From the NCBI GenBank assembly GCA_028285305.1, contig JANQPV010000075.1, forward strand, positions 1-64,000: 64,000 nucleotides of DNA, written 5' to 3'. Numbering within the stretch: the stretch's first letter is position 1; every line of letters starts with the position of its first letter. The position numbers were made by a program, and so were the translations under genes. Under the pieces are notes generated by a model. That model searched no databases and was not told the DNA's origin. It saw only the letters and a list, made by a program, of their open reading frames with translations. This document shows positions 40,971 through 47,782 of the stretch, piece after piece. Origin of the DNA: Alphaproteobacteria bacterium. GTDB taxonomy: Bacteria; Pseudomonadota; Alphaproteobacteria; SMXP01.

Positions 40971-41987
40971 TCACCCCCCAACCTGCACCCGGTAAAGGTC
41001 GCGGCCCAACTGCTCTGTGTTGATCTCCACATCCAGAAACATCTGGATCACTTCCACATTGGTGGTGAAGTGCAGCGTCGGCTCTTGGGTGGTGAAACGC
41101 CCGCCCGCGCCCATGGCCATGGGCAAGAGCAATTGATCCGCCAGGTGAGGACCCACGGCGGCGCCCGACTTGAGGAACGTCTTCACCTCTTTGGCCAGAT
41201 CTTCCGCCACCGCCTCGGCGCTCTTGCGCGGTTGACCGTAACCGGCAAAGACTTCGCATCCGTTCTCGAACTTCATTCGCACCAGGACCGCATTGCCGGG
41301 CCCGGCCGCATCCGGCGTCCGGAGCTCGACGTCGCCCTCAGACAAGGCGAGCTTTTGTTTCATCACTTTCAGCTCCCGCTTGGCGATGTCGCCCGGCAAG
41401 TTTGCCACCATCGCCTCAATGGAGAGATCGACAAGATCGCCGCGCTCCACATGATCGAGTGCCATAAAGTCATCCGACGGCTGAACGGCCGCCGACCAGG
41501 TCCCGCCGCCCGCCGGATAAAACCCATGGCGCTCCAACTCAGGCTCCACCTGGACGCCCATCTGCGCTAGCAGAGGCAAAAAGCCCTCGGCGAGTGTGTG
41601 GTAACAGGGTGCGGTGGGGTTATGGGTGCCGCCGGTCAGATGCACCGTCGATGGCGCGTCGCCGCTGATCAGCGCCGGCAGGATTGTTTGGAAAACCAGG
41701 TTGCTGCTCCCGGCGGTTCCTACGGAAAAGGCAAAGTTCCCGCTCACCAAATCGCCGGGCGTAAAGGTAAGGGCGCTGGCGCCGATGTCCGCTCCCTCCG
41801 CATGACCGCCGCACACGGCGACCGCCGCCTGGACGCACGTCAAGTGTTGCCGCATCAGCCCGGGCTTCTTGCGGTTGGCTCTGATCTTCTCGATACGGAA
41901 CGGCTGACCCGTCACGGCGGAGAGCGACAAGGCCGTGCGCAGCACTTGTCCGCCGCCTTCGCCCATAGAGCCGTCAATGGTGATCAT
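40971..41987 (-). CDS. rtcA: RNA 3'-terminal phosphate cyclase
   Basis: RtcA converts RNA 3'-phosphates to 2',3'-cyclic phosphates using ATP and can adenylylate 5' ends. The 338-residue protein has the family start (GSMGEGGGQVLRTALSLS), the RANRKKPGLMRQHLTCVQA motif and the catalytic His segment (HLADQLLLPMA). It is downstream of rtcB in the rsr-array-rtcBA operon. Together they can rebuild broken RNA ends. Confidence 0.96.
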   Translation of the reverse strand: MITIDGSMGEGGGQVLRTALSLSAVTGQPFRIEKIRANRKKPGLMRQHLTCVQAAVAVCGGHAEGADIGASALTFTPGDLVSGNFAFSVGTAGSSNLVFQTILPALISGDAPSTVHLTGGTHNPTAPCYHTLAEGFLPLLAQMGVQVEPELERHGFYPAGGGTWSAAVQPSDDFMALDHVERGDLVDLSIEAMVANLPGDIAKRELKVMKQKLALSEGDVELRTPDAAGPGNAVLVRMKFENGCEVFAGYGQPRKSAEAVAEDLAKEVKTFLKSGAAVGPHLADQLLLPMAMGAGGRFTTQEPTLHFTTNVEVIQMFLDVEINTEQLGRDLYRVQVGG

Positions 41988-42117: not shown

Positions 42118-43350
42118 TCACCCCTTCACGCACACGATCTGGCGCAGGGTGTGCACCACTTCGACCAGATCTTTTTGTGCCTCCATGACCGCGTCGATGT
42201 CTTTGTAGGCCGCCGGCGTTTCATCGATCACGCCTTCGTCCTTCCGGCACTCCACGTGTTTGGTCGCCTCGATATGCTCTTCCAGCGACACGCGCTTCTT
42301 GGCTTCCGTCCGCGACATCACCCGGCCGGCCCCGTGGGAGCAGGAGTGAAAGCTCTCGGCATTCCCCAGTCCACGGACGATATAGGACCGCGCGCCCATG
42401 GATCCCGGGATAATCCCCATCGACCCTTTGGCCGCCCGCACAGCGCCTTTCCGCGTGACAAAGATGTTTTCGCCGAAATGGTTTTCTTTGGTCACATAGT
42501 TGTGGTGACAGTTGACCGCCTCTACGTCCGCATCGAACGGCTTGGAGATCACCTCCCGCGCCGCCGCGATGAGGTTGCGCATCATCACTTGCCGGTTTGT
42601 CATGGCAAAGGCCTGGGCCCAACCGACCGCTTCCACATAGTCGTCGAAATGGTCGGTCCCTTCCGGAAAGTAAGCCAGGTTGATGTCCGGCAAGTTGATG
42701 AACCACTTCTCCATGTCTTTTTTGGCAAGCTCGATAAAGTGCCGGCCGATGGCGTTGCCCACACCCCGGGACCCGGAGTGCAGCATGAACCAGACCCGGT
42801 CCTCTTCATCGAGACAAACCTCGACAAAGTGGTTGCCCGTACCGAGCGTGCCCAAGTGCACGACGTTATGGCTTTTTGCCAGTTTCGGGTATTTATCCGT
42901 AATTGTCTTAAAGCCTTCGGCGAGGCCCGCCCAGGCGGTTTCAGTCGCTTTGGGGACTTCGTCCCAAGCGCCTTTGTCTTTTCGGCCTTTCTTATCAACC
43001 GAGATGGACCGTCCGTGGGGGATCGCTTTTTCGATGGCCGACCGCAAAAACCCGAGCGAGTCCGGCAAGTCGTTTGCCGTCAGGCTGGTTTGTGCGGCCA
43101 TCATCCCGCAGCCGATGTCGACGCCGACGGCGGCCGGAATGATCGCTTTCTTCGTGGGGATGACACTGCCGACCGTCGAGCCGATGCCTTTGTGAACGTC
43201 CGGCATCACCGCCACATGGGAGTGAATGAACGGCATTTGAGCGATCGAGCGCAATTGATCCGCCGCGCCCTCATCCACGGGCACGCCTTTGGTCCACATT
43301 TTGATCGGCGCTGCGCCGTCGTCTTTAATGACTTCAATGCTATCGCTCAT
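42118..43350 (-). CDS. rtcB: RNA-splicing ligase RtcB
   Basis: RtcB joins RNA 3'-phosphate or cyclic phosphate ends to 5'-hydroxyls using GTP and a divalent metal. Core motifs are complete: MPDVHKGIGSTVGSVIPT, GVDIGCGMMA, GTLGTGNHFVEV, HSGSRGVGNAIG and the guanylylated histidine motif CSHGAGRVMSRTEAKK. ATG 43350 follows a GGAG site (43362 is an alternative). It is preceded by the Y-RNA array, whose structured transcripts could be substrates or regulators. Confidence 0.96.
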   Translation of the reverse strand: MSDSIEVIKDDGAAPIKMWTKGVPVDEGAADQLRSIAQMPFIHSHVAVMPDVHKGIGSTVGSVIPTKKAIIPAAVGVDIGCGMMAAQTSLTANDLPDSLGFLRSAIEKAIPHGRSISVDKKGRKDKGAWDEVPKATETAWAGLAEGFKTITDKYPKLAKSHNVVHLGTLGTGNHFVEVCLDEEDRVWFMLHSGSRGVGNAIGRHFIELAKKDMEKWFINLPDINLAYFPEGTDHFDDYVEAVGWAQAFAMTNRQVMMRNLIAAAREVISKPFDADVEAVNCHHNYVTKENHFGENIFVTRKGAVRAAKGSMGIIPGSMGARSYIVRGLGNAESFHSCSHGAGRVMSRTEAKKRVSLEEHIEATKHVECRKDEGVIDETPAAYKDIDAVMEAQKDLVEVVHTLRQIVCVKG

Positions 43351-43411
43351 TTTCTTCTCCATCGAAATTCAGCCAGACCCCGGCCGGTCCGGGGCCTGGC
43401 TCCAGATATGT

Positions 43412-43475
43412 GCCGCGACGAGACTTGAGTGAAACAGTACAGTTTTGGCTATGTAGTTCCACCCACATTCGCGGC
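43412..43475 (-). ncRNA. Y-RNA-like module 6 (simple hairpin)
   Basis: On the minus strand GCCGCGA at the 5' end pairs with TCGCGGC at the 3' end (7 bp). The 5' side carries GAATGT-N5-GAACTACAT, as in the five other modules, and the 3' side CTCGTCGC. The apical part includes AAAC-loop-GTTT. It is the last module before rtcB, with no tRNA-like domain, similar to YrlB-type Y RNAs. Recognised by internal comparison, not by a covariance search. Confidence 0.75.
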
Positions 43476-43524
43476 GCCTGGTGAGGGGCAAACGATCGTG
43501 ACGATTTAGACGCCATCGGCGTCC

Positions 43525-43597
43525 GGCGACAAGACGACTATGCCCAGCAGGAGTCGAACCTGACAGGGCGCGCAATGTAGTCCGGTCTGCATTCCTT
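43525..43597 (-). ncRNA. Y-RNA-like module 5 (T-arm only)
   Basis: The minus strand carries GAATGC-N5-GGACTACAT and, at the 3' side, CTTGTCGCC. The distal part is a T-arm mimic, CAGG-TTCGACT-CCTG (43548-43562), stacked on a GCCC/GGGC helix (43566-43569 with 43542-43545). There is no D-arm or acceptor stem. The base stem is weak (GG/CC plus mismatches), so this could be a decayed copy. Confidence 0.7.
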
Positions 43598-43627: not shown

Positions 43628-43763
43628 GGGCGACAAGGTTATCTAACGAAACATCCTGCTCTACCTCTGAGCTACGGGTCCCGAATGTAAATGTTGGACC
43701 CGGCGGGACTCGAACCCGCGACCTGGCGAGTGACAATCGATGTAGTTCCGTCCGCATTCGCCC
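43628..43763 (-). ncRNA. Y-RNA-like module 4 with permuted tRNA-like domain (YrlA type)
   Basis: On the minus strand GGGCGA pairs with TCGCCC at the base. After GAATGC-N5-GAACTACAT come a T-arm (GCGGG-TTCGAGT-CCCGC, 43703-43719), acceptor strand CGGGTCC (43696-43702), a 14-nt cap, acceptor strand GGACCCG (43675-43681; seven Watson-Crick pairs) and a D-arm (GCTC-AGAGGTA-GAGC). Thus the parts of a tRNA occur in permuted order. The anticodon-stem position is poorly paired here, unlike module 3. The 3' side has CTTGTCGCC. Confidence 0.85.
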
Positions 43764-43788
43764 TAAAGTCTAATAGTCTCCTTTATTT

Positions 43789-43890
43789 CCCCGCCAAGCG
43801 AGCTCTGCGAGCGCCGAGCGGGGATCCATATTGACCTCCGAAGCCTTTTCACTCTTCCATATGGATCCCCGATCAAGTCGGGGATCGAGG
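43789..43890. repeat. CCCCGC...GCGGGGATCC hairpin repeat inside the Y-RNA array (copy 1)
   Basis: This unit contains CCCCGC (43789) pairing with GCGGGG (near 43818), followed by a GGATCCATAT...ATATGGATCC inverted pair and CCCCGAT...ATCGGGG-type stem (43865-43886). It sits between modules 3 and 4. A close relative lies at 44260-44347 between modules 1 and 2. Confidence 0.65.
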
Positions 43891-43917: not shown

Positions 43918-44115
43918 GAGGCGACAATGAGGCCTGCTCCGTCGAAGACGGATGAAACGCTTGAGAAGCGTTTCACAGGCCGAATGATTGCGAAACATCT
44001 GCCACTTGCTCTACCGACTGAGCTACGGGCCCATAGAAAAGGTGCTGGACCCGGCAGGACTCGAACCTGCGACCCAGTGGTTAGGGATCGATGTAGTTCC
44101 ACAGGCATTCGCCTC
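43918..44115 (-). ncRNA. Y-RNA-like module 3 with complete permuted tRNA-like domain (YrlA type)
   Basis: On the minus strand the base stem is GAGGCGA/TCGCCTC. Next to GAATGC-N5-GAACTACAT lies a 79-nt domain (44002-44080) with every tRNA helix in permuted order: anticodon-stem strand CCACT, GGGTC variable loop, T-arm (GCAGG-TTCGAGT-CCTGC), acceptor CGGGTCC, a cap of about 14 nt, acceptor GGGCCCG (one G-U pair), D-arm (GCTC-AGTCGGTA-GAGC), then AGTGG, pairing with CCACT. The rest forms a further branched domain with a 9-bp GAAACGCTT/AAGCGTTTC stem and a TCCGT-CTTCG-ACGGA stem enclosed by GGCCTG/CAGGCC. Confidence 0.9.
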
Positions 44116-44151
44116 GAAATCAGTTTGTTCCTTCTTTCATTTCAACAAGAC

Positions 44152-44236
44152 GGGGACAAGATTGGTAAGACACGTCTTTCCCTTTCGGGTTCTGAGTCGA
44201 ACAGATATAGCCAATGTAGTCCTACCGGCATTCCCC
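44152..44236 (-). ncRNA. Y-RNA-like module 2 (T-arm only)
   Basis: The minus strand starts with a GGGGA/TCCCC base stem and GAATGC-N5-GGACTACAT, with ATTGG/CCAAT closing the inner helix and CTTGTCCCC at the 3' side. The apical part contains TCTG-TTCGACT-CAGA (44191-44205), a stem with a T-loop-like seven-base loop, and a CCC-GAAA-GGG hairpin. No D-arm or acceptor stem is seen. Confidence 0.8.
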
Positions 44237-44259
44237 TAAATCTAGTAACTCCGTCTTTT

Positions 44260-44347
44260 CCCCGCCAAGCAAGCTCTGCGAGCGCTGCGCGGGGATCCAG
44301 TTACGAACTCTTTAGTCACCCGTGTGGATCCCCGGTCAAGCCGGGGA
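44260..44347. repeat. CCCCGC...GCGGGGATCC hairpin repeat inside the Y-RNA array (copy 2)
   Basis: Closely similar to 43789-43890 (CCCCGCCAAGC-AGCTCTGCGAGCGC core and GGATCC), with a GATCCCCGG...CCGGGGA stem at its right end (44326-44347). It separates modules 1 and 2. Confidence 0.65.
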
Positions 44348-44379: not shown

Positions 44380-44450
44380 GCCGGGGCGACAAGCGATTGT
44401 GAAACAAGTCAGGTTTCAATCGATGTAGTTCCACAGGCATTCGCCCCGGC
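44380..44450 (-). ncRNA. Y-RNA-like module 1 (simple hairpin, closest to rsr)
   Basis: On the minus strand GCCGGGGCGA pairs perfectly with TCGCCCCGGC (10 bp). The 5' side has GAATGC-N5-GAACTACAT and the 3' side CTTGTCGCC. An apical stem CGATT-GAAAC / GTTTC-AC-AATCG completes a Y-RNA-like fold. CCTTTTGTTT follows the base stem. It lies 20 nt after the rsr stop codon, so it is probably processed from the rsr transcript. Confidence 0.88.
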
Positions 44451-44470: not shown

Positions 44471-46024
44471 TTACACTTGGATCCGCTCGATTTCGCGAAC
44501 CCAATAATCAGCATGCGCTTCGCCTTTGGCAAACGCCGCCAGCGTATCGAACACCGCGTCGGTAAACCCGCCGACATTCAAGATGTCGAGGCGGCTTTGC
44601 GCCTGGGCCGTACCGTATGGCGCAATGTCGATGCATGCCAACTTGGCGTGGGGGACGCGCTGTTTCAGCGCTTCCCATTCAGCCATCATGCCGGTCCCAA
44701 GACCTCTGCGGCCGTCCGCCCACGACTGGTTATCGGAAACAAAGACAACCAAATCGGGCTTTGCCCGGGCCTTGTTCAACCGCTCCAAAGCCTTAGAGCA
44801 GTTGGTTCCGCCGCCGCCAAATGCCGCGAGCTTGCGGGCGTTGGTCATGACGGAATCGCGCGCCGACAGGCGAGCCTCATGCACGTGCGTGTCGAACGGC
44901 AACACCAGGGTTGACCGGTTCTTGCGCAACAGAGCCGCCGAAACGAGCGCTGCCACATCCACATACCGGACCGCGGACGTCTGTCCCCGGCGGTATCCGG
45001 TCACCGGCGCGCGCATAGACCCAGAAACGTCCGTGCACACAACCACTCGGCCGTCGATGGCCGGGACGTTCTCAAGGGCGATTTCCATCGCATCTTCAAG
45101 AGCGTCCTGAACCCGCTTAGGCACATCGCCGCCAGCCATGCCGTGCGCCATCATCAACTGGTACGGCATCACCCGCGCCTGAGAGATAGCTTTACGATCG
45201 GCCAGTTTGCGGGCGATCGCCTTGTCCATCCCGCGGACGGAGAAGACGTCGTGCCGGGCAAACGTGCGCAGGTTCATACGAACCATTTGCCATCCACCCC
45301 GTTCCGCGATGGTCGCCCAATGGTCACGCCGAAGCGGCAATTGGGTCAGCATTTGAAACGGAACGTCCGGGATCGGACCGTCACCGGCTTCTTTGAACCG
45401 GATGTAATCTTGAACCGCTTGCGGCAGCAAGTTCACATCGCACGGTTTTCCGATCAGCCAAGCGAACAGCGCGTTCCGGCGCGGATCGTCCGCTTTCGGG
45501 TGGACCATCTTGATGATGTCCGCCAGCGACGGGGATTGCCCGACGGAGGCGTTAATCAACGTCCGGTCCGACGCCCCAAGCAGCCAATTCTGAATCATCC
45601 GCTTCGGGCAAGATCCCAAGGACTTCCGGCCTGTGGCGCCCGACCGCATGATTTGGACAAAAGTCCGCAGCATACGTCCGTTGTCCACAATTTCGCCGAA
45701 CGTGCCAGCGAACAACACGGTATCAAGGCCCGACAGAACGGCCAGCAAGAATGCTGGGGTGTCTTTCATGTAGCCGTAACGCCGCGCGAAGACAGCGGTT
45801 TGCGCAATAAACAACGGCGTCACCGCCGCTGTGGCTTGCAATAGGTCCTCCAGATGCGCAAGGCCATCTGCATAGAACGTATCGCTAAACGTCCCGGTTA
45901 TGGCCAACTGTGCCAGCCGATGGCGTGGGTCGTGGTCATAGGCGGGGCCGCCGGCAAGGTTGACCGTATCGGCAACTGGCGCTGAGCGGCCCCGCAACGG
46001 GACAAACACGGATTTGTTTGCCAT
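44471..46024 (-). CDS. rsr: Ro60-related TROVE/vWA protein (Rsr)
   Basis: Rsr is the bacterial Ro60 orthologue, a ring-shaped RNA-binding protein that holds Y RNAs and misfolded RNAs. The 517-residue protein has a TROVE HEAT-like region (RLAQLAITGTFSDTFYADG, FARRYGYMKDTPAFLLAVL, RLWQ-region equivalents up to ~residue 330) and a C-terminal vWA domain with a MIDAS motif (VCTDVSGSM) and GGGGTNCSKAL. ATG 46024 has GAGGAAG upstream. The gene is first in an rsr-array-rtcBA operon. Confidence 0.95.
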   Translation of the reverse strand: MANKSVFVPLRGRSAPVADTVNLAGGPAYDHDPRHRLAQLAITGTFSDTFYADGLAHLEDLLQATAAVTPLFIAQTAVFARRYGYMKDTPAFLLAVLSGLDTVLFAGTFGEIVDNGRMLRTFVQIMRSGATGRKSLGSCPKRMIQNWLLGASDRTLINASVGQSPSLADIIKMVHPKADDPRRNALFAWLIGKPCDVNLLPQAVQDYIRFKEAGDGPIPDVPFQMLTQLPLRRDHWATIAERGGWQMVRMNLRTFARHDVFSVRGMDKAIARKLADRKAISQARVMPYQLMMAHGMAGGDVPKRVQDALEDAMEIALENVPAIDGRVVVCTDVSGSMRAPVTGYRRGQTSAVRYVDVAALVSAALLRKNRSTLVLPFDTHVHEARLSARDSVMTNARKLAAFGGGGTNCSKALERLNKARAKPDLVVFVSDNQSWADGRRGLGTGMMAEWEALKQRVPHAKLACIDIAPYGTAQAQSRLDILNVGGFTDAVFDTLAAFAKGEAHADYWVREIERIQV

Positions 46025-46192
46025 TTCTCTCTTCCTCTTTGTTAACAAGGCTAAGATGGCGCGATCGGGACAGCATAAAAACAAAAATCGCGAATAGATC
46101 TAAGTATTTGATATTGAATAGAAAAATGGGATGCGCGAGTTTTTAGTGGAGAGAAATTGTATAGATATAAATATAAATATATAAATCTCGAT
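46025..46192. promoter_or_regulatory. Divergent rsr/rtcR control region
   Basis: This 168-bp interval should hold the promoters of both rsr and rtcR. An AT-only tract (TATAGATATAAATATAAATA-type, 46159-46187) precedes rtcR. An imperfect palindrome (TATT-TG-ATAT-TG-AATA, 46105-46120) could be an operator. I searched the rsr-reading strand for GG-N10-GC and found no sigma-54 promoter. Confidence 0.55.
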
Positions 46193-47782
46193 ATGACCAA
46201 AGGAATCGTCGTTATAGGTTTGCTCGGAACGACATTGGATGCGGGCAAATCGCCGGCCCGTTGGAACCGGTGGCGGCCCACCATTTCGCTCTTTCAGCAG
46301 GAAGACATGCTCATCGGCCGGCTGGAGCTTCTCTACGACCGGCGCCACACTAATCTGGCTAAGCATTTGGTCGATGACATCGCGTTGGTCTCGCCGGAAA
46401 CCGAAGTCAGTCTGGTGCAACACAACATCGCCGATCCTTGGGACTTTGAGGAAGTCTACGGCGCGCTGCAAGATTTCGCGTTGGGCTACGAATTCGATCC
46501 GGCGGCGGAAGACTACCTCATCCACATCACCACCGGCAGCCACGTGGCACAGATCTGCCTCTATCTCTTGACCGAGTCGCGCTACCTGCCGGGCCGACTC
46601 CTGCAAACCAGTCCCCCCACCAAGAAAGATCCGGGGCCTGGATCCACCAGCATCATCGACTTGGATCTTTCCAAGTACGACAATTTGGCCCAGCGCTTTG
46701 AAACGGAGCGCGACAACGCTACGTCTTATCTCAAAGGCGGTGTGGAGACCCGCAACAAAGCCTTCAACGCTATGATCGAACGGATCGAACAGGTGGCGAT
46801 CCGATCCGATGCGCCCGTCTTGCTTTTGGGGCCTACGGGCGCGGGCAAATCCCATTTGGCCCAGAGGATCTATGACCTCAAAAAGGCGCGGCACATCGTC
46901 GAGGGCAAATTCGTCAGCATCAATTGCGCCACCATCAAAGGCGAGCAGGCCATGTCCGTCCTCTTCGGTCACAGGCGCGGCTTTGCGGGCGCCGCCACGG
47001 AGCGCCGAGGCCTCTTGCGCGAAGCGGACAAGGGCGTGTTGTTCCTGGACGAGATTGACGAGCTCGGCATGGACGAACAAGCGGTGATGCTGGATGCCAT
47101 CGAGCACGGACGATTTTATGTCCAAGGGTCCGACCGGGAAGCCCAAAGCAACTTCCAACTGATCGCGGGCGCCAATACGGACCTCAGCGCGGCCGTCCGC
47201 GAAGGCCGCTTTCGCGCCGATCTCTTCGCCCGCCTCAATCTCTGGATGTTTCAGTTGCCGGGTCTTGCAGAGCGCCGCGAAGACATCGAGCCCAATCTGG
47301 AGGCGGAGCTGAATAAACTCATGAACCGGGGAGAGAGCAAAATCGCCTTTGCCGCCGATGCCCGCAGGAAATATGTGAAGTTCGCCATAGATCCGTCGAG
47401 CCCATGGTCCGGCAATTTCAGAGACCTTTCGGCCTCCGCGACCCGTATGGCCACCCTGTCGCCCCGCGGGCGCATCACGGCGGGCATCGTCGATGAAGAA
47501 ATCGCTCGGCTCAAATCCCAATGGTCCGCTGGCGAACAAAATGATGATTTCCGCCTCGTGGTAGAGGTATTGGGGGAGGCGCATGCAAGCGACCTCGACC
47601 GCTTCGATCTTGTTCAGTTGGCCGAAGTCATCCGCACCTGCCGGTCGGTCGCCTCCCTCGCCGCTGCCGGCAAGGAGCTTTTTGCCAAGTCCCGCCGGCG
47701 CCGCAAAAGCGTCAACGACTCAGACAGGGTGAAGAAGTACCTCGCCAAATTCGGCCTCTCCTGGGGGGATATTGCAGAGTAG
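46193..47782 (+). CDS. rtcR: RtcR, CARF-domain regulator of RNA repair
   Basis: RtcR normally senses RNA ends through an N-terminal CARF domain and activates rtcBA with sigma-54. The 529-residue protein has that N-terminal region (GLLGTTLDAG, HITTGSHVAQICLYLLTESRYLPGRLLQ), a AAA+ domain with Walker A (LLGPTGAGKSH, near residue 210), Walker B (GVLFLDEIDEL), arginine finger (FRADLFARLNLW) and a C-terminal HTH (SVASLAAAGKELF). The L1 loop is GFAGA (residues ~263-267) instead of GAFTGA, one residue short and without the contact threonine. Confidence 0.95.
   Translation: MTKGIVVIGLLGTTLDAGKSPARWNRWRPTISLFQQEDMLIGRLELLYDRRHTNLAKHLVDDIALVSPETEVSLVQHNIADPWDFEEVYGALQDFALGYEFDPAAEDYLIHITTGSHVAQICLYLLTESRYLPGRLLQTSPPTKKDPGPGSTSIIDLDLSKYDNLAQRFETERDNATSYLKGGVETRNKAFNAMIERIEQVAIRSDAPVLLLGPTGAGKSHLAQRIYDLKKARHIVEGKFVSINCATIKGEQAMSVLFGHRRGFAGAATERRGLLREADKGVLFLDEIDELGMDEQAVMLDAIEHGRFYVQGSDREAQSNFQLIAGANTDLSAAVREGRFRADLFARLNLWMFQLPGLAERREDIEPNLEAELNKLMNRGESKIAFAADARRKYVKFAIDPSSPWSGNFRDLSASATRMATLSPRGRITAGIVDEEIARLKSQWSAGEQNDDFRLVVEVLGEAHASDLDRFDLVQLAEVIRTCRSVASLAAAGKELFAKSRRRRKSVNDSDRVKKYLAKFGLSWGDIAE

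What the first reader, a model, noticed from the sequence alone, without database searches (positions are those of the whole stretch)
44002..44080. Complete circularly permuted tRNA-like domain inside module 3
All tRNA helices are present but in permuted order: anticodon 3' strand, variable loop, T-arm, acceptor 3' strand, capped loop, acceptor 5' strand, D-arm, anticodon 5' strand. The acceptor (7 bp), D-, T- and anticodon-stem pairings are intact. The T-arm and variable loop are of normal tRNA type, with TTCGAGT in the T-loop and GG in the D-loop. It is the YrlA-style mimic, here in near-canonical condition, and may be modified by TruB or bound by tRNA factors.
Basis: partly seen in the sequence, partly recalled or inferred. 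Interest (0 to 1): 0.85.

Follow-up and report, generated by a model that had tools for sequence, protein, structure and literature searches.

The report
Y RNA carrying permuted tRNA-Lys mimic
The sequence encodes a bacterial Y RNA whose arm is a tRNA lookalike with its halves swapped, a kind already known as YrlA; what stands out is that it closely resembles the cell's own lysine tRNA and sits in a row of six Y RNAs inside an RNA-repair operon.

Summary
On the minus strand, 44080→44002 encodes a full tRNA fold in circularly permuted order: anticodon 3' strand, variable loop, T-arm, 7-bp acceptor closed by a 14-nt cap, D-arm, anticodon 5' strand. It is not chance: 2 strict hits in the window, 0 in 150 Markov windows, and strong covariation over 31 domains from related ro60 loci.

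It belongs to a known family. Rfam YrlA (RF02553) matches it (53.7 bits, E 5e-11, below the curated cut-off of 69), and the circular permutation of bacterial Y RNA relative to tRNA is published. It lies third in a row of six Y RNA units between ro60/rsr and rtcB-rtcA, next to rtcR.

Three points go further. Both halves match the host's tRNA-Lys(UUU) far better than any other tRNA (score 48 against 34). Caps in many related units begin with a remnant of an encoded 3' CCA, pointing to origin from tandem tRNA genes. Related operons also carry divergent extra tRNA genes (Lys, Asn, Gln, Pro). Very short caps and extended hairpins in relatives argue against maturation by RNase P, RNase Z or RtcB. 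Function as an Rsr-tethered tRNA mimic is inferred, not shown.

The parts
44002..44080 (-). Circularly permuted tRNA domain of Y RNA unit 3 (M3): anticodon 3' strand, variable loop, T-arm, acceptor hairpin with 14-nt cap, D-arm, anticodon 5' strand
   Evidence: sequence; descriptor 0 in 150 Markov windows; covariation in 31 relatives
43918..44115 (-). Whole Y RNA unit 3: closing stem GAGGCGA/TCGCCTC, Ro-binding helix GGAAC/GTTTC, permuted tRNA domain, and a 51-nt two-hairpin insert in the 3' strand of the stem
   Evidence: Rfam YrlA 53.7 bits, E 4.8e-11; folds
43931..43981 (-). Insert GGCCTG...CAGGCC enclosing two hairpins, in the stem loop of unit 3; absent from the other five units
   Evidence: sequence and RNAfold
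43628..43763 (-). Y RNA unit 4 with a second complete permuted tRNA domain (43729-43652; acceptor GGACCCG/CGGGTCC)
   Evidence: Rfam YrlA 64.0 bits, E 5.2e-14; descriptor
44380..44450 (-). Y RNA unit 1, minimal: Ro-binding stem with a short hairpin, no tRNA domain
   Evidence: Rfam YrlA 33.6 bits, E 3e-5; fold
44151..44237 (-). Y RNA unit 2: stem plus a T-arm-like hairpin CTGTTCGACTCAG
   Evidence: Rfam YrlA 24.4 bits, E 0.014; sequence
43523..43597 (-). Y RNA unit 5, degenerate: GGACTACAT motif and a T-arm CAGGTTCGACTCCTG only
   Evidence: repeat family; sequence; no Rfam match
43412..43475 (-). Y RNA unit 6, minimal
   Evidence: Rfam YrlA 26.8 bits, E 0.0029
44471..46084 (-). Ro60/Rsr-like protein (TROVE and vWA domains); ATG start probably near 46024
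   Evidence: Pfam vWA_Ro60 3.4e-10, TROVE 1.1e-4 just below cut-off; NCBIfam Rsr 1.9e-21; PDB 2NVO Rsr 3e-18
42118..43362 (-). RtcB RNA ligase
   Evidence: Pfam RtcB 1.2e-131
40971..41987 (-). RtcA RNA 3'-phosphate cyclase
   Evidence: Pfam RTC 5.4e-76; NCBIfam equivalog
46157..47782 (+). RtcR, sigma54-dependent activator of the RNA repair operon
   Evidence: NCBIfam RNA_repair_RtcR 732 bits, above cut-off

Best explanation
The feature is the effector arm of a YrlA-family bacterial Y RNA, the third of six Y RNA units in an rsr-(Y RNAs)-rtcB-rtcA operon next to rtcR. The long stem made by the 5' and 3' ends should bind the ring-shaped Ro60/Rsr protein encoded upstream. The far end folds as a complete tRNA body whose acceptor ends are joined by a cap and whose anticodon loop is replaced by the Y stem. 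It therefore offers the tRNA elbow and acceptor stem, but no anticodon and no free 3' end, to tRNA-binding enzymes, and so tethers Rsr to such an enzyme or competes for tRNA-recognising enzymes when tRNAs are broken. Unit 3 is specifically a mimic of the host's tRNA-Lys(UUU). Such domains most likely arose from the junction of two tandem tRNA genes (3' half of the first, 5' half of the second). Shown here: the fold by sequence and covariation, family membership by covariance model, operon context, likeness to tRNA-Lys, and CCA remnants in related caps. Inferred: Rsr binding, modification, tethering or decoy function, and expression.
For: YrlA covariance model matches units 1-4 and 6. Neighbouring genes are Ro60/Rsr, RtcB, RtcA and RtcR. 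Sequence-only detection in ro60 loci gives 6.18 of 7 acceptor pairs against 3.74+-0.20 with shuffled partners, n=45. All 7 acceptor pairs show two-sided changes. In a sample of 385 genomes of the class, all six with a match to this Ro60 at E<=1e-20 have a YrlA match beside it. Two further YrlA loci checked (L066, L067) lie beside a Rsr/TROVE-like frame of another subtype, recognised by eye. Both halves of M3 independently fit tRNA-Lys(UUU) best, total 48 against 34 for the next isotype, while all other permuted units reach at most 39; against the host's own tRNAs M3 is 57 of 66 identical to Lys, next best 52. Caps: 9 of 39 start with N-CCA and 8 more with N-N-CA. Published: YrlA superposes on tRNA by circular permutation (PMC11472068); YrlA is a substrate of DusA and TruB and its stem binds Rsr (PMC8394870); the operon responds to tRNA halves and the YrlA tRNA-like domain was proposed as a competitive inhibitor of the anticodon nuclease (PMC7790460).
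Against: The YrlA scores of all units are below Rfam's curated cut-off (53.7 against 69 for this unit). RNAfold does not favour the anticodon stem (0.006) or the D stem (0.33) of M3. No ortholog of M3 itself was found, since the four other genomes of its family lack a Ro60 match, so its pairings are tested only through paralogs and other units. No sigma54 site stands out upstream of ro60 in this window (7 of 11 positions, chance level). No PrrC-like family was found in this genome, so there is no direct link between the Lys likeness and a known Lys anticodon nuclease. There is no expression or binding data.
Confidence: 0.8

Rival explanations
1. A true permuted tRNA gene: ends joined at the anticodon by RtcB, the cap cut out by RNase P and RNase Z, CCA added, giving a functional tRNA as in algae and Thermofilum.
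For: Same order of parts as permuted tRNA genes (PMC3978253); RtcB next door; related caps begin with N-CCA.
Against: No anticodon: the strands run straight into the conserved Ro-binding stem. Caps in relatives shrink to 0-3 nt or become extended hairpins (GCCGGGACAACCGG, AGCCCCTTGGGGGA), so processing is not conserved; the discriminator base is not conserved (A15, T12, G11, C1).
Confidence: 0.03
2. A two-piece RNA like permuted tmRNA: RNase P opens the cap, leaving a mature acceptor end that could be charged (G3-U70 and A73 are present in M3, as in tRNA-Ala and tmRNA).
For: Permuted tmRNA works as two pieces (PMC3978253); G3-U70 with A73 in M3; weak tmRNA model hits; CCA remnants.
Against: M4 has A3-U70 and L062 T3-A70; the cap of M3 reads A-GCA, not A-CCA; tight or hairpin-closed caps in many relatives.
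Confidence: 0.06
3. Isoacceptor-specific decoy or sponge: M3 soaks up a tRNA-Lys-directed nuclease or modifying enzyme, while other units and extra tRNAs in related operons serve other tRNAs. (A narrower form of the best explanation, not exclusive of it.)
For: Strong Lys match of both halves; two units in relatives (L049, L059) match Asn with both halves; extra Lys, Asn, Gln, Pro tRNA genes in related operons; a decoy role was proposed for YrlA (PMC7790460).
Against: M3 lacks the anticodon loop that anticodon nucleases cut; most units show no clear isotype; no PrrC-like protein found in this genome.
Confidence: 0.25
4. A tRNA pseudogene junction or chance arrangement with no function.
For: Tandem tRNA junctions give the same order of motifs (L048, L050, L060 Asn-Gln junctions).
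Against: In those junctions the acceptor strands pair at only 3-4 of 7, against a mean of 6.18 of 7 in Y units; covariation; YrlA model match over the whole unit.
Confidence: 0.02

Closest known systems
YrlA (Rfam RF02553), Y RNA-like of Salmonella Typhimurium; structure PDB 6CU1
   Same: Y stem plus T-arm, capped acceptor hairpin and D-arm in permuted tRNA order; rsr-Y RNA-rtcBA operon; conserved GGCGAATGC and GGAACUAC motifs
   Different: Six units in a row here against yrlB and yrlA in Salmonella; two units lack any tRNA part; unit 3 has a 51-nt insert in the stem and close likeness to tRNA-Lys; scores fall below the Rfam cut-off
Deinococcus radiodurans Rsr-Y RNA-PNPase particle (RYPER)
   Same: Ro60-type protein (PDB 2NVO matched) expected to be held to a partner by a Y RNA
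   Different: The partner was not tested here; in this locus the genes sit with rtcB-rtcA and rtcR
Circularly permuted tRNA genes (red and green algae, Thermofilum pendens)
   Same: 3' half precedes 5' half; intervening sequence joins the acceptor ends; tandem-duplication origin proposed
   Different: No anticodon, embedded in a Y RNA, caps evolve as closed loops, no sign of maturation
Permuted (two-piece) tmRNA of Alphaproteobacteria
   Same: T-arm and acceptor 3' strand precede acceptor 5' strand; G3-U70 and A73 in M3
   Different: Keeps a D-arm and an anticodon stem; no tag reading frame known; cap not conserved as a processing substrate

Membership tests
YrlA (RF02553) | Match to the family covariance model | tested here: inconclusive
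   53.7 bits, E 4.8e-11 over the full model, below the gathering score 69; a relative (G342) reaches 73.6, above it
YrlA (RF02553) | T-arm, capped acceptor hairpin and D-arm in permuted order | tested here: met
YrlA (RF02553) | Long stem with conserved GGCGAAUGC and GGAACUAC motifs closing on a UUGUCGCC strand | tested here: met
YrlA (RF02553) | Encoded beside an Rsr/Ro60 protein | tested here: met
YrlA (RF02553) | Binds Rsr; modified by TruB and DusA | not testable with these tools
   published for YrlA (PMC8394870)
Permuted tRNA gene | Junction that restores an anticodon loop on ligation | tested here: not met
   strands continue into the Y stem; no anticodon
Permuted tRNA gene | Acceptor ends freed by RNase P and RNase Z | tested here: inconclusive
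Permuted tmRNA | Covariance model match above cut-off | tested here: not met
   RF04321 22.6 bits against 47, on unit 4 only; RF01851 20 bits against 70 on unit 3

The most novel reading that the evidence does not exclude
RNA repair operons of Alphaproteobacteria act as tRNA damage-response arrays: besides RtcB and RtcA they carry rows of Y RNAs whose permuted tRNA domains are captured from particular tRNAs (here Lys) and, in relatives, divergent spare copies of tRNAs that nucleases may attack (Lys, Asn, Gln, Pro), so that decoys and replacements are induced together when tRNAs are cut.
Probability: 0.2. Interest if true: 0.75.

Novelty: new member of a known kind. Interest (0 to 1): 0.4.

Why it matters
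The permuted tRNA arm itself is known. This locus adds a clean case in which the mimic can be traced to a named tRNA of the host and in which relatives show how such arms may arise, from tandem tRNA genes with the CCA still visible in the cap. It makes the open question of what Y RNA tRNA arms are for testable: compare binding of M3 and of tRNA-Lys to host enzymes and tRNA nucleases. The extra divergent tRNA genes inside related RNA repair operons suggest that repair is coupled to replacement of cut tRNAs.

Tried and rejected
Rfam at gathering thresholds and ARAGORN on the window found nothing, because the YrlA scores are below cut-off and the tRNA order is permuted. G3-U70 plus A73 in M3 looked like an alanine identity signal, but unit 4 and relatives change that pair, so I do not build on it. 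A sigma54 promoter upstream of ro60 was sought and not found in the window, though strong matches exist in L054, L062, L093 and L094. A PrrC-like nuclease in this genome was sought by PF13166 and not found. Isotype assignment of other permuted units is mostly ambiguous. The main Y RNA papers (Chen 2014, Wang 2018, Sim and Wolin 2018, Burroughs and Aravind 2016) are not held, so how far multi-Y-RNA arrays or operon tRNAs are already described could not be settled.

Full report
What is in the sequence. On the minus strand, 44080 to 44002 reads anticodon 3' strand, variable loop, T-arm, acceptor 3' strand, 14-nt cap, acceptor 5' strand, D-arm, anticodon 5' strand. All 21 cloverleaf pairs are possible, with one G-U in the acceptor, and the residues for the tRNA elbow contacts are present. 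A strict descriptor finds this and one further unit (43729-43652) in the window, and nothing in 150 Markov windows. Put back in normal order with a donor anticodon loop and CCA, both are called tRNA by ARAGORN.

Context. The minus strand carries ro60/rsr (44471-46084), then six Y RNA units (44450 to 43412), then rtcB (42118-43362) and rtcA (40971-41987); rtcR lies divergently at 46157-47782. Each unit begins with a motif like GGCGAATGC...GGAACTACAT, with small variations. Units 1 and 6 are minimal stems, 2 and 5 keep only a T-arm-like hairpin, and 3 and 4 carry full permuted tRNA domains. Rfam YrlA matches units 1-4 and 6 (64.0 to 24.4 bits), all below the cut-off of 69. Unit 3 also has a 51-nt two-hairpin insert (43981-43931) in its stem.

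Conservation. A scan of named genomes with the Ro60 protein gave 26 loci, all from Alphaproteobacteria, mainly Rhodobacteraceae and relatives. Nearly all carry several Y motifs and T-loops downstream of ro60. Permuted domains were picked by sequence only (T-loop followed by TAGCTCA), without asking for acceptor pairing. Their acceptor strands pair at 6.18 of 7 positions, against 3.74+-0.20 when partners are shuffled. On an alignment of 31 distinct domains every acceptor pair has two-sided changes, the covariation score is 0.436 against 0.147 shuffled and about 0.1 slid, the T stem is 100% paired, the D stem is invariant, and the anticodon stem is 68% paired. So the capped acceptor helix is under selection as a helix; the anticodon stem is weaker. 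The selection of units uses the D-arm motif, so the invariance of the D stem is partly by construction.

Distribution. In 385 sampled genomes of the class, six have a match to this Ro60 at E<=1e-20, and all six have a YrlA match beside it. Two more loci with YrlA matches, in G285 and G049, lie next to a reading frame that looks like a Rsr/TROVE protein of another subtype; this was read from the translations, not scored. Many of the weaker YrlA hits are probably ordinary tRNA look-alikes and were not followed.

What it is and how it may work. This is a YrlA-type Y RNA. Published work shows that bacterial Y RNA superposes on tRNA by circular permutation (PMC11472068), that the YrlA stem binds Rsr, that the tRNA-like domain is modified by DusA and TruB and is reported to bind PNPase (PMC8394870), and that the rsr-yrlBA-rtcBA operon is switched on by tRNA halves through RtcR, with a decoy role proposed for the YrlA tRNA domain (PMC7790460). 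By analogy M3 should be an Rsr-tethered tRNA mimic. Binding, modification and function are inferred.

Not a maturing tRNA. In relatives the caps range from 0 to 21 nt. Many are 0-3 nt, others have become extended hairpins (GCCGGGACAACCGG, AGCCCCTTGGGGGA), and the discriminator position is A, T, G or C. The anticodon loop is replaced by the Y stem. This speaks against RNase P, RNase Z or RtcB processing into a usable tRNA. The thermodynamic model gives the anticodon stem of M3 only 0.006 and the D stem 0.33, but the penalty for forcing the anticodon stem is 2.1 kcal/mol and tertiary contacts are not modelled.

Origin. In 9 of 39 units the cap begins N-CCA, and in 8 more N-N-CA, including all five of the GGRCCCG/CGGGTCC group to which M3 and M4 belong. 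That is where an encoded tRNA 3' end would lie if the domain came from the junction of two tandem tRNA genes. The present tandem tRNA-Asn/tRNA-Gln junctions in L048 and L060 have the same layout, with spacer GCCAATAT. Tandem duplication with loss of the outer halves has been proposed for permuted tRNA, rRNA and tmRNA genes (PMC3978253). The units are not independent of each other, so the counts overstate the number of events; I count at least seven separate groups with the CA in place among about thirteen with caps of 4 nt or more, a grouping made by eye.

Which tRNA. M3 is closest to tRNA-Lys(UUU) with both halves: 57 of 66 identities to the host gene, next best 52. Against a panel of 95 tRNAs from three genomes the score is 48 against 34 for the next isotype, whereas no other permuted unit exceeds 39. 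Two units in L049 and L059 lean to tRNA-Asn with both halves. This suggests recent capture of, or conversion by, particular tRNA genes. It is suggestive, not proof.

Beyond the finding. In 13 of the related loci ARAGORN finds tRNA genes in normal order on the same strand between ro60 and rtcB: Lys(UUU), Asn(GUU), Gln(UUG), Pro(UGG or CGG), plus odd ones in L054. In two genomes examined these copies are 69-82% identical to the housekeeping gene of the same isoacceptor; the operon tRNA-Lys has a conserved C2-A71 mismatch. Phage tRNAs that resist host tRNA nucleases (PMC10264068, PMC11555353; abstracts seen) and the stress-induced tRNA operon co-regulated with rtcB in Anabaena (PMC10272220) are the nearest precedents. 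The papers found here do not mention tRNA genes inside rsr-rtcB operons, but key papers are not held.

Verdict. Interest lies in the six-unit array, the tRNA-Lys likeness, the CCA remnants and the extra tRNAs in relatives.

Noticed in passing
L043, L045-L051, L053-L056, L060, between ro60 and rtcB (e.g. L048:7978-8335): Normal-order tRNA genes Lys(UUU), Asn(GUU), Gln(UUG), Pro(UGG/CGG) sit inside the RNA repair operon; in two genomes checked they are divergent (69-82% identical) second copies of the housekeeping isoacceptor.
   Followed up: partly
L045, L043, L051, L056 operon tRNA-Lys: All four operon tRNA-Lys genes carry a C2-A71 mismatch in the acceptor stem and share an anticodon stem different from the housekeeping gene.
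   Followed up: no
window 43981-43931 (-): A 51-nt insert with two stable hairpins in the 3' strand of the stem of Y RNA unit 3, seen in no other unit of the window.
   Followed up: partly
window 43778-43884 and 44249-44347: Two copies of a palindromic repeat element (GGGGATCCA...TGGATCCCC) lie between the Y RNA units, 78-88% alike.
   Followed up: no
plasmids of Rhizobium, Shinella, Methylosinus (hits H1-H30; L093, L094): ro60-Y RNA-rtcB clusters with rtcR are carried on large plasmids; L093 and L094 also hold several Y motifs with tRNA-like parts.
   Followed up: partly
L095, Myxococcus phage Mx1: A phage encodes a Ro60-like protein (46% identical) near several tRNA genes and a peptidyl-tRNA hydrolase.
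   Followed up: no
L066 and L067 (G285, G049): A second, more divergent type of Rsr-like reading frame lies next to YrlA-like RNAs in other Alphaproteobacteria; in L067 an RtcB-like frame is also near.
   Followed up: partly
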